DNA of 64,000 nt from positions 24,894,545-24,958,544 of the forward strand of contig NC_030386.2 in assembly GCF_001625215.2 (NCBI RefSeq), given 5' to 3'. The first letter of the stretch is position 1. Every line of letters begins with the position of its first letter. Position numbers and translations under genes: made by a program. Shown one piece after another: positions 34,186 through 48,713 of the stretch. This stretch comes from Daucus carota subsp. sativus. Taxonomy: Eukaryota; Streptophyta; Magnoliopsida; Apiales; Apiaceae. The notes beneath the pieces were generated by a model that did no database searches, was not told where the DNA came from, and saw only the letters and a list, made by a program, of their open reading frames with translations.

Positions 34186-34232
34186 AAGACAATAACTACT
34201 GAACTAAATATAACTAATGTGCCCAAATATTA

Positions 34233-34483
34233 CTCCCTCTGTCCCATTTAATTGTATACGTTTCTTTTCAACTGCTCGACACGCATTTCAATGCTCTTAT
34301 AAAATATGGTTCCGTAACTTATTTTTAAAATTTTCTTTTTCTGAATAAAAATATAACATCCAAACTTTAATTCAGAAAAAGAAAATTTTAAAAATAAATT
34401 ACACAACTACACTTTACAGGAGCATTAAAGTCCGTGCCGCGTCCCCGTCCCCCAATGTATACTACTCAGGGGGACGGAGGGAG
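34233..34483. mobile_element. Stowaway MITE (251 bp), copy A
   Basis: Termini CTCCCTCTGTCCC and GGGGACGGAGGGAG, flanked by TA duplications. The interior is an inverted repeat around TTTTTAAAATTTTC and includes GCATTAAAGTCCGTGCCGCG. Same family and same length as 43411-43661. Confidence 0.9.
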
Positions 34484-34956
34484 TACTAGCTTACTCAGGT
34501 TACCGGGTGGCTCTGCCACTATCGACAAGTTTCATTATCCGACACTCTGTGCCGAGATCCGAGCAACATAAATCTAATGTGTTGTCCACAAAAGATGGAC
34601 AATCATAAATATTTGTTTGACAAGGGATTAGTCGATCAAAGCATATCTGTATGACGAGCAAATGGACAAACAAATCGAACAGAAACAGTCCAATTTCAGC
34701 TCCAGTAAATAGCACATTTTTCCTATTTATTTATAATTTATTTGCATGTTGTCACTGAAGTTGATTATGTTACATTTATATAAGCGAAACTTCACGACAT
34801 TGATTTATTTTTGTTCATACTGTCACATAAGATTTCCAAAGTTGTACGTTCCATTACAAGATGTCACATAGCCAAAGAGCAAATAAAAATTCTAGAATAT
34901 GTCCTCAAACATTCAAGGGAAATGCTATGACATATGAAAGTTTAAGCTCACTTAAT

Positions 34957-42772: not shown

Positions 42773-43410
42773 AATTTCGAAGATCATTGTATAAAAGTTT
42801 GAAATAATCATAATCAATAATTTCGATTACAATAGTTGGATATTAGTTGACTTAGGTTGTTAAAAAATTCATAATCGATATGTAGTGTTCTAAATATCTT
42901 TCGTTTAAAAAATATATTTTTTCAATTCAGTAATTATCCTAGGACAAAAGTAAAAAGAGGAGGCCAATAACTTAGTACAAAAAAACCCTCATAAATTCTG
43001 AATCGACAAGTCACCAGATTAGTTTTGATTTCCGACTTTTACAATCATACTGATATGCTATAAATTCGATTCTTATGAAATACATTTCAGGGAAGTCGTT
43101 TTTGAAAACTAACTTCTCAACTTTTCTTTAAGAATTAAACAATTATGATAAATATCCTCCACTCACCCGTAAACACTTGTAATTTGCGAGTTCCTTTCTT
43201 CAATTTATTGGTGACTGTTAAAAGCCTGACTTCTGCGTTTGTAAGTTAGAAAAATTTATTCGTATCGTTTATGTAAAAAGTGAAAAAACACTTATAAAAA
43301 ACTTAGAATGCTAACTTTTGTCTCTGGACGTCTATTTTTTTCAAACACTTCAATCATTTATAAGTCTTAAGCCAAACTGTCCCTGCATATTTTATCGTAC
43401 TTGATTGATA
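42773..43410. other. Intergenic, nothing recognised
   Basis: AT-rich, no ORF with family similarity and no clear repeat ends. Confidence 0.5.
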
Positions 43411-43661
43411 CTCCCTCCGTCCCATTTAATTCTATACGTTTCTTTTTCACTACTCGACACGCACTTCAATGCTCTTATAAAACATAGTTCTACAACTTAT
43501 TTTTAAAATTTTCTTTTTCTGAATAAAAATATAACATTCAAATTTTTATACAGAGAAGAAAAATCTTAAAAACAAGTTATAGAACTATATTTTACGGGAG
43601 CATTAAAGTCCGTGCCGCGTCCTCGTCCCCCAATGTATATAACTCAGGGGGACGGAGGGAG
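43411..43661. mobile_element. Stowaway MITE (251 bp), copy B
   Basis: Termini CTCCCTCCGTCCC and GGGGACGGAGGGAG with TA duplications at 43409-43410 and 43662-43663. It is alignable over its whole length with copy A (34233-34483). Confidence 0.92.
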
Positions 43662-44176
43662 TACTTATCTGTTTCGTTTATAGAAAATGATACGGTAGTT
43701 TTGCACAAGATGTCCTGTTTTACTACAGTATTAAAAACAGCCTTTTACAGTACAAACCTTTTTGTCAGAAAACGGTTTAAAATAAAGAGGAACATCAAGA
43801 AAAAAGAAAACATTCGGGTGGAGAGATCTATGATCTGTTTCACAATGAAAACACATGCATGACGCATGCGCCTGCAAATAAACACACCAAACGCATCCAA
43901 AATATAAGTATAAATACAAAGATTGTTGACGATAAATTGTGGAAAATTTGGAATAAATTTCCAATTTCTCTTATGTTTGATCTTGATAGTGGATTAGGAA
44001 ATTTCACTTAAAATTATATTATCCTAATTTAATATTCAACATATTTATGTTAATAGTTAATACTACTCACAATTTGCCCTTTTTCAAAACCAGAAAGTAG
44101 AAACTACAGACGTTTTGTCTGTTCACACCCCTATACTCTAGTAATAAGTGTGAACTACCTTTGTCTCGTTACCAAG

Positions 44177-44578
44177 CAGGGCTGTAATTCGAGTCGAGTC
44201 AGTCGAATTTCGAGCCGAACTTAATTCGAGCCAAGTTTAATCGAGTCGAGCTGAGCCGAGCCGACTTATTTAACTAATCGAGTTTAAATCTCTGCCCGAA
44301 CTCGAGCCGGATCGTTTAGCTAAACAAGCTGGTTTTAACGAGTCAAGTGAGCCAACTCGCATAATTTTATACTAAATCGAACCTAAACCTCTACCTGAAC
44401 TCGGCTCGTTTATTTTCACGAGTCAAATCGAGCCGCTTCGTTAAATTAAACGAGCCGGAATTTTTGTCCGAATTCGGCTCGTTTAACGAGTCGAGCCGAG
44501 CCGAACCCAGTTAAACGAGTTTGAGCCGGACGAGCTGGCGAGCAACCCGACTCGAATTACAGCCGTAGTACTAAGTGA
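44177..44578. mobile_element. hAT-like MITE rich in GAGCCGAGC motifs (402 bp)
   Basis: Inverted ends share GGCTGTAATTCGAGTCG. The interior is built from short GAGTCGAG/GAGCCGA repeats in both orientations. Flanks TACCAAG and TACTAAG give a 7-bp imperfect duplication, consistent with an old 8-bp hAT target. No coding capacity. Confidence 0.7.
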
Positions 44579-45047: not shown

Positions 45048-48000
45048 ATGAGGAGAAATTGGTTAATTTTACTCCTGATTTTAGTTGTTTTCTTTGTTGG
45101 GTGCTCCTCAGCTTCATCCTCTCCTCCTGCAAGTGAGTAAATAATCAATTTCATACTGTTTTTTAGTACTAAATGTGTGTATTTTTTTGTTTTAATTATT
45201 TCATTCATATTTCACATCTGTGTTTTGATTGTTGCTGTTTTGTAGAAATTGTTAGTGGGGTTGTCTCAAAAGTTGTTTCACTTCTACTTAGATGGCTCTG
45301 GTCACTAACATCTAACAAACCAACAGGTGCATTGTACAAACTCCAGTTTCAAGTTTTCTCTGTTTTTGTTTTTCTTGATGTTGGAAATTTTTATGTGTAT
45401 ATATGTTTGGGGGTGAGTTAAGTGACTAATGGGGTTGTGAGAATTGCAGCTCTTTCTGGCCGCTCGAAGATGAAATTTGAAGGTGGTTACACTGTAGAGA
45501 CTGTTTTCGATGGAAGCAAACTTGGAATTGAGCCTTACAGTGTAGAGGTTTCCCCATCAGGGGACCTTCTGGTGTTGGATTCTGCAAATAGTAATACTCC
45601 CTCTGTTTCAAATTAGATGTCCACTTTAAAAAAATCACACAGTTTAAGAAAAGTGGTTATTCACATATTAATTGCATTAAATGATCAAAATATGTGGAGT
45701 GAGATTGATCTAGGAAATAGGAATAAGAGATATGTGGAGTAGAATTGACTTTGAAAATATGATTTTGCATTGAAAGTTGAAGTGGACAAGTAATTTGAAA
45801 CAAAAAATTTTCTTGAAAGTGGACATGTAAATTGAAACGGAGGGAGTATCTATAAAATCTCAACACCGTTGTCCCGATGTAAGTTAATATGCTGATTCCC
45901 TTTGTTGTATACTAGATTATCAATGAAAACCATTGATCATATAATATGCTTGCAAAGCAATTACTCTTTAAAGAGAAAGTCTGTTATTTTTATTCTATTG
46001 TAATTGTGTTCAGTAATTCTGGTTTGAGCTGTAGTGTGTAATTGTTTAGATGAATTGACCATGTGAAAGAACTAGGGCTACAGTCGCAAGTTGGTGACTG
46101 TTTATGCACATTAAATTTCATAACAACATTACAATTTTTTCTTTTACTCTCTTTTTGTTTATGGGGAAAGTAAGTCCATCCGTTGTTTTTCTATTCTAAG
46201 GCTCTAGTTAAGATTGCATCCCGACCTTCAATCAGCTCATTGATATTAAACCAAGTCCACATTACGTTGCTAATTATTAAGTGGCCCTTTCCGTAAGGTC
46301 TTAGAGAATGGCCCTTTCCAGGATCTTATATTCTAACATTCCCCCTCACTCGAGAGCCCATTTATGGGTCGAAGAGTGGATCACGGGCGCTCATCTTTGG
46401 AGCATTAATTTGCCATTCGTGCCACTATAAATTGTGAGAATATTGGGGGTGGCAGGGATCGAACCCGAGTCCTCTGCCAACCTGGCTCTGATACCATGTT
46501 AAGGAACCAGTTACTCTAAAACCTCAAGGTCTTAGAGAATGGCCCTTTCCAGGATCTTATATTCTAACAAATGGTATACTACATGAAAGTCATTAATCAC
46601 TTTCATTTTAGAACTCTTTTAGTTAACGACTACCGCCAGCTTTTCATAATTAGTTAACTTTGAAACTATGTGGTTTTTTAAACTTTGTTGATTTTAGTGA
46701 ACACAGAAAGCTAGTTTGCACTTGCCATGAAAACTATCACTTGTACTTAATATGAGGATAATTATACTTAAGCTTTTTACACTGTTGATTTTCAGTCTGT
46801 GATCTCTTTCTTTTGCTCCGGCGGATAATTTGATTTTGTAATGTATAAGAAACGCTTATTGATTTGCATTATGTAGCTGCAGAAATATTTATTTTAACAG
46901 GAGCAAGTTGTTTTTGTGAAAAATCATTTTCTTTTCAGAGCTACGTCACCACTCAAATTTTCTATAAATTTTCTGCAGATAGCAGACCAAAGCTTGTAGC
47001 TGGCTCATCTGAAGGTTACTCTGGCCATGTGGATGGAAAGCCAAGAGAAGCAAGATTGAACCACCCAAAAGGGCATACCATTGATGAGAGAGGAAATATT
47101 TATGTTGCAGACACCACTAATATGGCAATTAGGAAGATCAGTGATGCAGGTGACTTGAGTACTAAGAATTTACTTATTTACTGATTGGAAACACCTGCAT
47201 TATAAGTCTTCTTACCATGATACAGCCAAAACAAATACAATCATATGGAGATCAGCAAAGCAAGTTTATATTTAAAAACAGATGTCTTTTTTCTATGTAT
47301 CCAGGGGTTGTGACGATTGCAGGAGGGACATTGTCTCGAGGGGGAGGTCATGTTGATGGTCCAAGTGAAGATGCAAAATTCTCAAATGATTTTGATGTGG
47401 TTTATGTTGGAAGCACTTGTTCTCTTTTGGTTGTTGACAGGGGAAATCAAGCAATTCGTGAGATTCAACTCAATGATGATGAGTGTTCCCAAAAGTATGA
47501 TGGAGATCTTAATTTAGGTACACATAAAAAAAATATTCACATACTTTTATACAACATTCACATGAAACTGAATGTAAAATTTCGAATAATGTATATATGA
47601 AATTGATGATTGTAGGCATAGCAGTTCTTGCTGCAGCAGGATTTTTCGGATACATGATGGCTCTGTTACAACGTAGGCTTATAGCCATGTTTTCGTCCCC
47701 CGACTCCTACCATGTAAGAAACCAATGCCATGGTGTACTTGTCTGTTCTGTTTTCTACACTTCATTAGCTAGGCAATGTGCTTATTTCTACATCCATCCC
47801 ATTTAGATGTTAAATCTGTAAGTGTAAAGGAGAGGTGTTAGGAGGATTAGGATATCCCAGTAGCGCATCTACTCCAAAATCTAGGATCGATATAAGTTTA
47901 TTTAGCTTCCTTTATTATGTATCTATGCTTTGTAACACGTTGAGCTTATACATATTCCCACTTAAACTTCTTCTTTATTTCTTCCTGCAGGAACATAGAG

Positions 48001-48713
48001 ATTCATTAAAGGGTTTCCCTCCTGCACCATATCAGAAGCCTCCTGTATCAGTTAGGCGTCCCTTAATTCCAGCTGAACATGAACATGAACCCGAGAGAGA
48101 AGAAGGCTTTTTTGGTTCATTACATAAGCTTTTAATAAACACCAGCTCGTCTGTAGTTGAACTCTTTGGAGGATTATTCTCAGGGTTTAGAAAACCAGTG
48201 CATCCTGTCCAACAACAATATTACCAGCAATTGAGCAGACATGCTAACACTTGGCCCGTGCAAGAAAGCTTTGTCATTCCAAATGGAGATGCACCACCTC
48301 CATTAGAAAGAAGAGACCCAACTCCACGAAAAACCTACCAATCTACTACAAAGGACATGGAGAAAAGTCGGCAATATAAGCAAAACCAGTCTTTTTATGG
48401 TGGGTGGAATGGAGATTTTCGTCAGCAACAACAGTTCCAGCAGCATATGCAACAGCAGCAGCAGCAGCTATACCAACATTTGCAGCAACAGCAACATAAA
48501 CAGATTCAACAGCACCATCAGAGACACCAGTCATCTAGTCCTCAGACATACTATGAGCAAAACTGCGAGACAAATGAGATCGTATTTGGAGCAGTCCAAG
48601 AACATGATGGGAGGCATGAAGCTGTTGTCATCAAGGCTCTCGACTATGCAGATCCTAAGAGCAGTAATATTCGATCCCGGTATAATTATACGGGTTACTC
48701 GTATGGTTATTGA
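45048..48713 (+). CDS. NHL-repeat membrane protein with a MITE in exon 3
   Basis: Exons: 45048-45132, 45246-45326, 45450-45878 (with the MITE inside), 46979-47149, 47305-47517, 47616-47713, 47991-48713; 515 aa if the MITE is ignored. It follows plant NHL-domain proteins such as Arabidopsis At1g70280. Residues 1-22 form a signal peptide, then KIVSGVVSK, NHL beta-propeller repeats (EPYSVEVSPSGDLLVLDS; HPKGHTIDERGNIYVADT), and a transmembrane helix in exon 6 (VLAAAGFFGYMMALL). The cytosolic tail has a Gln/His-rich tract (about 48425-48535). Function is unknown in this family. The Stowaway at 45597-45846 puts a stop (TAG 45614-45616) in the frame. Removing MITE plus one TA restores the family sequence NSNIYKIS exactly, so the gene was intact before insertion. 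Splicing 45591-45842 out would also keep the frame. Confidence 0.85.
45597..45846. mobile_element. Stowaway MITE inside NHL exon 3 (250 bp)
   Basis: Termini CTCCCTCTGTTTC and GAAACGGAGGGAG, flanked by TA at 45595-45596 and 45847-45848. MITE plus one TA is 252 bp, a multiple of three. It lies in the codons for Ser-Asn of the NHL repeat. This copy has a different interior (paired AGTGGACA/TGTCCACTTT-type arms) from copies A and B, so it belongs to another Stowaway family. Confidence 0.93.
46295..46569 (-). mobile_element. TRIM-type miniature LTR retrotransposon, 3' LTR truncated
   Basis: Minus-strand order: 5' LTR complement(46497..46569), 73 bp, from TGTTAGAATATAAG to TTCCTTAACA. Directly after it comes a primer-binding site TGGTATCAGAGCC complementary to initiator tRNA-Met (46484-46496). 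A ~135-bp non-coding interior follows, then a purine tract GTGAGGGGGAA (46339-46349) and the first 44 bp of a 3' LTR (46295-46338), identical to the 5' LTR. The rest of the 3' LTR is missing. It lies in intron 3 of the NHL gene, antisense to it. Confidence 0.8.

What the first reader, a model, noticed from the sequence alone, without database searches (positions are those of the whole stretch)
45591..45848. Stowaway MITE in a coding exon that could be spliced out in frame
Exon 3 of the NHL gene holds a 250-bp Stowaway with TA duplications. Precise removal restores the family sequence, so it is an insertion into a working gene. Unspliced, it brings a stop at 45614. The host exon has a donor-like GTAATA at 45591, and the MITE right terminal repeat offers CGGAG|GGAG with AG at 45841-45842. 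Removing 45591-45842 (252 nt) keeps the frame and changes only two residues (NS-N to NR-S) before IYKIS. The MITE terminus would thus supply a 3' splice site and create a new intron.
Basis: partly seen in the sequence, partly recalled or inferred. Interest (0 to 1): 0.88.

Follow-up and report, generated by a model that had tools for sequence, protein, structure and literature searches.

The report
Recent Stowaway insertion breaks carrot gene
A short, recently moved jumping element sits inside a coding exon of a carrot gene and probably disables that copy; the idea that the cell splices it out as a brand-new intron is possible on paper, but the splice signals look too weak to make it likely.

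Summary
A 250-bp Stowaway (core 45597-45846, TA on both sides) lies in exon 3 of a seven-exon NHL-repeat gene. Read without it the gene gives 515 aa; with it, a stop at 45614 after 110 aa. Cutting 45591-45842 does keep the frame. The genome is almost certainly carrot. Four paralogues read through the insertion point. Among 30 best-scoring family copies this one has 1 private difference and its nearest differs at 4 of 254 sites, so recency can explain the open downstream exons. The proposed donor and acceptor score below all 21 introns inferred from this genome, though one of those has a weaker U1 match. A suitable in-frame GT is common (17 of 77 TA sites in this coding sequence), and the AG is the family terminus (29 of 30 copies). 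Most likely this is a recent loss-of-function allele; in-frame exon-3 skipping is a likelier rescue than a new intron. Coding DcSto insertions are already catalogued (67 of 18,518 sites, PMC6881990). No transcript data were available.

The parts
45048..48713 (+). NHL-repeat gene, seven coding exons: 45048-45132, 45246-45326, 45450-45878, 46979-47149, 47305-47517, 47616-47713, 47991-48713 (stop codon at 48711)
   Evidence: Borders read from the sequence and checked by the 515-aa frame; Pfam NHL repeat E 2.3e-07; paralogues in the same genome
45450..45878 (+). Exon 3, 429 nt with the insertion, 177 nt without core plus one TA
   Evidence: exon 3 of the C3, C8 and C4 paralogues ends at a GTAAG donor in the matching place
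45597..45846 (.). Stowaway MITE core, 250 bp
   Evidence: 40 of 1,405 first-look candidates in the genome were scored and all 40 (this copy included) matched at 95-100%
45595..45596 (.). TA target-site duplication, left
45847..45848 (.). TA target-site duplication, right
45614..45616 (+). TAG stop brought in frame by the MITE (after 110 aa)
45591..45592 (+).
   Evidence: Score -5.26 against minimum -2.35 of 21 inferred donors; U1 duplex -1.8 kcal/mol, stronger than 1 of 21; 70.5% of plus-strand GTs in the window score as high
45841..45842 (+).
   Evidence: Score -7.58 against minimum -2.71 of 21 inferred acceptors; G at -3, 0 of 21; 42.4% of plus-strand AGs in the window score as high; AG at this column in 29 of 30 family copies

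Best explanation
A DcSto-like Stowaway MITE, presumably moved in trans by a mariner-type transposase, inserted recently at a TA in exon 3 of one member of a small carrot NHL-repeat gene family. Shown by sequence: the insertion, its TA duplications, the in-frame stop at codon 111, the otherwise open gene, the close similarity of family copies and the uninterrupted paralogues. Inferred: the main transcript keeps the MITE inside exon 3, stops early with four exon junctions downstream, and is mostly degraded by nonsense-mediated decay, so the allele is null or weak. If any product is rescued, in-frame skipping of exon 3 (456 aa), or an upstream donor joined to exon 4, is likelier than splicing at the MITE terminus. 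Paralogues may cover the loss.
For: Stop at 45614 and open 515-aa frame without the insert; four exon junctions downstream of the stop in the gene model. Mean pairwise difference 3.7% among the 30 copies fetched, this copy 1 private difference, nearest copy 4 of 254. Paralogues open across the site on C3, C8, C4 and C9, C3 matched over nearly the whole protein. Proposed splice sites below 21 of 21 inferred introns. The natural exon-3 donor GAT|GTAAGT and exon-4 acceptor are present and within the range of the other introns (leave-one-out 0.47 and -1.71). Skipping exon 3 keeps the frame. In PMC6881990 (passages and section 5 read) coding-sequence sites are 67 of 18,518 DcSto sites and DcStos are 'virtually absent in exons'. 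PMC12595863 (passages read) describes a Stowaway in exon 1 of a potato flavonoid hydroxylase gene with loss of its expression.
Against: No transcript was seen, so retention and decay are inferred. Some genuine sites are weak: one inferred donor here (CAT|GTAATG) has a weaker U1 duplex (-1.5) than the candidate (-1.8). The matrices rest on only 17 to 21 introns inferred from frame and homology, none checked against RNA. The copies compared for age were the best-scoring ones, so the recency estimate leans on close relatives.
Confidence: 0.8

Rival explanations
1. One reading: exonic GT at 45591 and the AG at 45841-45842 of the MITE's right terminus act as splice sites, so the MITE is removed as a new 252-nt intron and a near-normal protein (NR-S for NS-N) is made.
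For: Frame arithmetic correct, 515 aa. Four other exonic GTs paired with a terminus AG also leave the gene open (45483, 45486 and 45540 with 45842; 45574 with 45846; 5 of 170 pairs tested in all), and 45483 and 45540 score better (-1.5) than 45591. The candidate's U1 match is stronger than 1 of 21 inferred donors. Transposon insertion is listed as a source of introns, on indirect evidence, in Oryza and Zea (Table 1 of PMC3443670, passages read). The architecture resembles introners that carry the 3' site and take the 5' site from the insertion site (PMC9860276, passages read).
Against: Donor and acceptor lower than 21 of 21 inferred introns; acceptor -3 is G (0 of 21); 4 T in -20..-4 against 5-11. 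An in-frame GT within 9 nt occurs at 17 of 77 TA sites of this coding sequence and within 30 nt at 32 of 75, so the coincidence is ordinary. The acceptor AG is family sequence in 29 of 30 copies. PMC9860276 reports introners among animals and land plants in only two groups, both animals.
Confidence: 0.06
2. Exon 3 (45450-45878) is skipped in part of the transcripts, giving a 456-aa in-frame protein lacking 59 residues of the NHL-repeat region.
For: Normal exon 3 length 177 is a multiple of three and the skipped frame is open. The insert lengthens the exon to 429 nt and places a long inverted repeat in it. MITE-linked changes of splicing are reported in mulberry (PMC6593561) and, for hAT-like MITEs, in carrot (PMC8227079) (passages read).
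Against: Both borders of exon 3 are present and score within the range of the other inferred introns; no transcript data.
Confidence: 0.3
3. The MITE insertion is an assembly or haplotype mix-up and the locus is really empty.
For: DcSto sites are very polymorphic between accessions (PMC6881990, passages read).
Against: Clean TA duplications and exact ends; an assembly of 441 Mb in 11 contigs; this copy has its own private difference among 30.
Confidence: 0.03

Closest known systems
Carrot DcSto Stowaway MITE families (PMC3695323 passages; PMC6881990 passages and section 5)
   Same: CTCCCT terminus, TA duplication, about 250 bp, high copy number, carrot genome; coding-sequence insertions known (67 of 18,518 sites)
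   Different: Termini differ from the printed DcSto7b/Dcmar1 31-nt repeat at 7 (left) and 5 (right) of 31 positions, so it is not DcSto7b by that repeat; the family number was not assigned because other family consensus sequences were not seen
dTstu1 Stowaway in exon 1 of a potato flavonoid hydroxylase gene (PMC12595863, passages read)
   Same: Stowaway in a coding exon that disrupts the host gene
   Different: There a phenotype and a line lacking the element were observed; here only DNA is known
Introners (PMC9860276, passages read)
   Same: TIR element with target-site duplication, proposed to bring the 3' splice site and take the 5' site from the host exon
   Different: No transcript evidence, one locus, weak sites; that study reports no evidence for introners in land plants
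Maize Ds-derived intron (Giroux et al. 1994, seen only as a reference in PMC3443670)
   Same: Plant DNA transposon reported as an intron
   Different: The 1994 paper itself was not read; here no splicing evidence and a different superfamily (recalled)

Membership tests
Stowaway MITE | TA target-site duplication | tested here: met
Stowaway MITE | Terminal inverted repeats beginning CTCCCT | tested here: met
Stowaway MITE | Short, many similar copies | tested here: met
   250-bp core; 40 of 40 scored candidates (of 1,405 in the first look, this copy included) matched at 95-100% over 250 or more of 254 positions
Stowaway MITE | Mobilised by a mariner-like transposase | not tested
   Proposed for DcSto7b in PMC6881990 (passages); not tested for this family
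DcSto7b | 31-nt terminal repeat shared with Dcmar1 | tested here: not met
   7 and 5 mismatches of 31
Transposon-derived intron (introner-like) | Element is removed from mRNA by the spliceosome | not testable with these tools
   no transcript data held
Transposon-derived intron (introner-like) | Usable splice sites at the element's borders | tested here: inconclusive
   GT and AG are present; both score below 21 of 21 inferred introns, but the donor's U1 match exceeds 1 of 21; usability was not observed
Transposon-derived intron (introner-like) | Recurs as introns at several loci | not tested
   other copies were not examined for exon location
Plant NHL-repeat gene family | NHL repeat and conserved exon structure | tested here: met
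   Pfam PF01436 E 2.3e-07 on the first 355 residues; paralogues in the same genome with matching exons where modelled

The most novel reading that the evidence does not exclude
The insertion is a newborn spliceosomal intron: the Stowaway's purine-rich right end works as a 3' splice site with a weak exonic donor, giving a land-plant case of introner-like intron birth caught very early.
Probability: 0.06. Interest if true: 0.65.

Novelty: new member of a known kind. Interest (0 to 1): 0.2.

Why it matters
As a recent coding insertion of a Stowaway it is one more allele of a known class, useful as a presence/absence marker and as a likely natural knock-out of one NHL-family gene. If the element were spliced out it would be a very young transposon-derived intron in a land plant, a group in which a survey of 3,325 eukaryote genomes reported no introners (PMC9860276, passages read). 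One RT-PCR would settle which it is.

Tried and rejected
New-intron model: tested with splice-site matrices from 17 introns of the NHL family and 21 with four introns of a neighbouring channel-like gene; judged unlikely, kept at 0.06. The six window NHL introns were read by eye and checked by frame; eleven paralogue introns come; the four channel-gene introns were read by eye. Dropped before the count: C3 intron 5 (no solution) and intron 6 (ambiguous), C9 first intron (ambiguous acceptor), all, and one channel-gene intron with a GC donor. Introns of C8, C4 and C9 outside the blocks given to one search were not modelled.

Selection for splicing: compared the proposed acceptor with the family; its AG is unchanged family sequence. 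A first alignment mixed orientations (12 of 30 copies unreversed), so its counts are not used; one search repeats it with those copies reversed.

Other splice outcomes: 19 AGs from 45591 to 45846 were tried as acceptors for exon 2, only 45842 leaves the gene open; of 170 pairs of 10 exonic GTs with 17 AGs, 5 leave it open. Coincidence test: the AG was taken as given and new stops were not checked; the paralogue stretches were concatenated and the last C8 stretch taken approximately, so it may include some intron. Family number: not assigned; DcSto7b excluded by its printed terminal repeat. An orthologous empty site in another carrot accession and transcript data were not sought, since no collection named in the tools is of plant genomes or transcripts. 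One search used a start codon one base off and gave empty proteins; one search corrected it. The excision string printed was joined at wrong bases and is not used.

Full report
What is there. The stretch holds a Stowaway MITE whose core is 45597-45846, flanked by TA on both sides. Its ends are inverted repeats of 41 nt at 88% complementarity, and the single strand of 45580-45860 folds far better than shuffled sequence (z -6.45, 0 of 200 shuffles). Two other 255-bp Stowaways of a different family lie in the window at 34231-34485 and 43409-43663.

Host gene. The element sits in exon 3 of a seven-exon NHL-repeat gene, 45048-48713 (Pfam NHL repeat). With the insert left out in a script the gene reads 515 aa. 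With the insert retained it stops at 45614 after 110 aa.

Genome and relatives. The window is G000:C6:24894545-24958544 of a 441-Mb genome of 11 contigs. The two primers of a carrot single-copy control printed in PMC6881990 lie in proper orientation within 279 nt on C2. Three of the four printed Dcmar1 primers lie within about 700 nt on C8; the fourth, a flank primer, was not found in that 9-kb stretch, and the other flank primer lies between the two element primers, so this does not prove the accession. Carrot is nearly certain; DH1 is likely but unproven. Four paralogous genes (C3, C8, C4, C9) read across the insertion point without interruption, for example CENSNLYKISTPLS and SANSNLYKISSSLS; C9 is more diverged there. 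The sequence without the insert is therefore the family state.

Age. The first look found 1,405 candidate copies; 40 were scored, this copy among them, and all 40 matched at 95-100%. I fetched 30. After orienting them, mean pairwise difference is 3.7%. The copy in this gene has one difference found in no other of the 30 (45754), and its nearest relative differs at 4 of 254 sites. These are the best-scoring copies, which leans towards close relatives, but a recent insertion is the simplest reading. It can also explain why the downstream exons are still open.

Splice-site test. I inferred 17 GT-AG introns from this gene and its paralogues from reading frame and homology and scored them leave-one-out. 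Four introns of a neighbouring gene (cyclic-nucleotide-gated-channel-like; the name is recalled, not from a call), read by eye, were scored as held-out positives and then added. The proposed donor ATA|GTAATA scores -5.26 against a minimum of -2.35 among the 21. The proposed acceptor scores -7.58 against -2.71, and a short acceptor core scores -3.71 against -2.35. Its -3 base is G, seen in 0 of 21, and it has 4 T in the upstream tract against 5-11. With the 17-intron matrix, 70.5% of plus-strand GTs and 42.4% of plus-strand AGs in the window score as high as the two proposed sites. One result runs the other way: on U1 duplex energy alone one inferred donor (-1.5) is weaker than the candidate (-1.8). 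The matrices are small and no intron was checked against RNA.

Is the coincidence notable? The AG comes with the terminus (29 of 30 copies). An in-frame GT within 9 nt upstream exists at 17 of 77 TA sites in this gene's coding sequence; within 30 nt it exists at 32 of 75, and at 11 of 47 and 31 of 66 in stretches of two paralogues. An in-frame GT-AG pair around a 252-nt insertion is thus expected often by chance. The count took the AG as given, did not check for new stops, and used approximate paralogue exon limits.

Other outcomes. Of 19 AGs tried as acceptors for exon 2, only 45842 leaves an open gene. Skipping exon 3 gives 456 aa in frame. Upstream donors 45483, 45486, 45540 and 45591 joined to exon 4 also keep the frame. 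With retention the stop has four exon junctions downstream, a standard setting for nonsense-mediated decay (established knowledge).

Literature. In PMC6881990 (passages and section 5 read) 67 of 18,518 DcSto sites are in coding sequence. PMC8227079 (passages) says that intronic Stowaways are usually spliced out with their introns and that hAT-like MITEs make splice variants in carrot. PMC12595863 (passages) describes a Stowaway in a potato coding exon. PMC3443670 (passages) lists transposon-derived introns, on indirect evidence, in Oryza and Zea among others. PMC9860276 (passages) reports introners among animals and land plants in only two groups, both animals. PMC6593561, PMC3695323 and PMC5454002 were also read as passages only. 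Searches aimed at a Stowaway spliced from an exon listed no paper that I recognised as showing it, judged from titles and abstract starts; the library lacks most subscription journals.

Verdict. This is a clean but ordinary example of a recent exonic Stowaway insertion, most likely a loss-of-function allele. The new-intron reading stays open mainly because no RNA could be examined.

Noticed in passing
window 34231-34485 and 43409-43663: Two further Stowaways, 255 bp each with their TA ends, 88.6% identical to each other, of a different family from the one in exon 3.
   Followed up: partly
window 46295-46569: In intron 3 of the NHL gene, two identical 44-nt direct repeats, 231 nt from start to start, flank a stretch holding GGCTCTGATACCA (46484-46496), which looks like a reversed primer-binding site (recalled motif): possibly a small TRIM-type LTR element.
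   Followed up: no
window 44180-44564: About 385-bp stretch with 20-nt inverted ends (95% complementary) and a CGAGCC-rich interior, just upstream of the NHL gene; perhaps a MITE-like insertion of another kind.
   Followed up: no
L033 2512-2799 and L034 2923-3211: Part of exon 3 and intron 3 of the C3 NHL paralogue (about 90% identical over 212 nt) lies inside a stretch of about 3 kb shared at 97% between C3:32.86 Mb and C2:0.80 Mb: looks like a gene fragment carried by a mobile or duplicated segment.
   Followed up: partly
window 40602-40601, minus strand: A channel-like gene on the minus strand appears to use a GC donor (CAG|GCAAGC) for one intron (read by eye).
   Followed up: no
window 45780-45801 and 45817-45838: The right end of the MITE holds a 22-nt direct repeat at 91% identity, start-to-start spacing 37 nt, so the terminal sequence is partly doubled, perhaps as repeated transposase-binding motifs (inference).
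   Followed up: no
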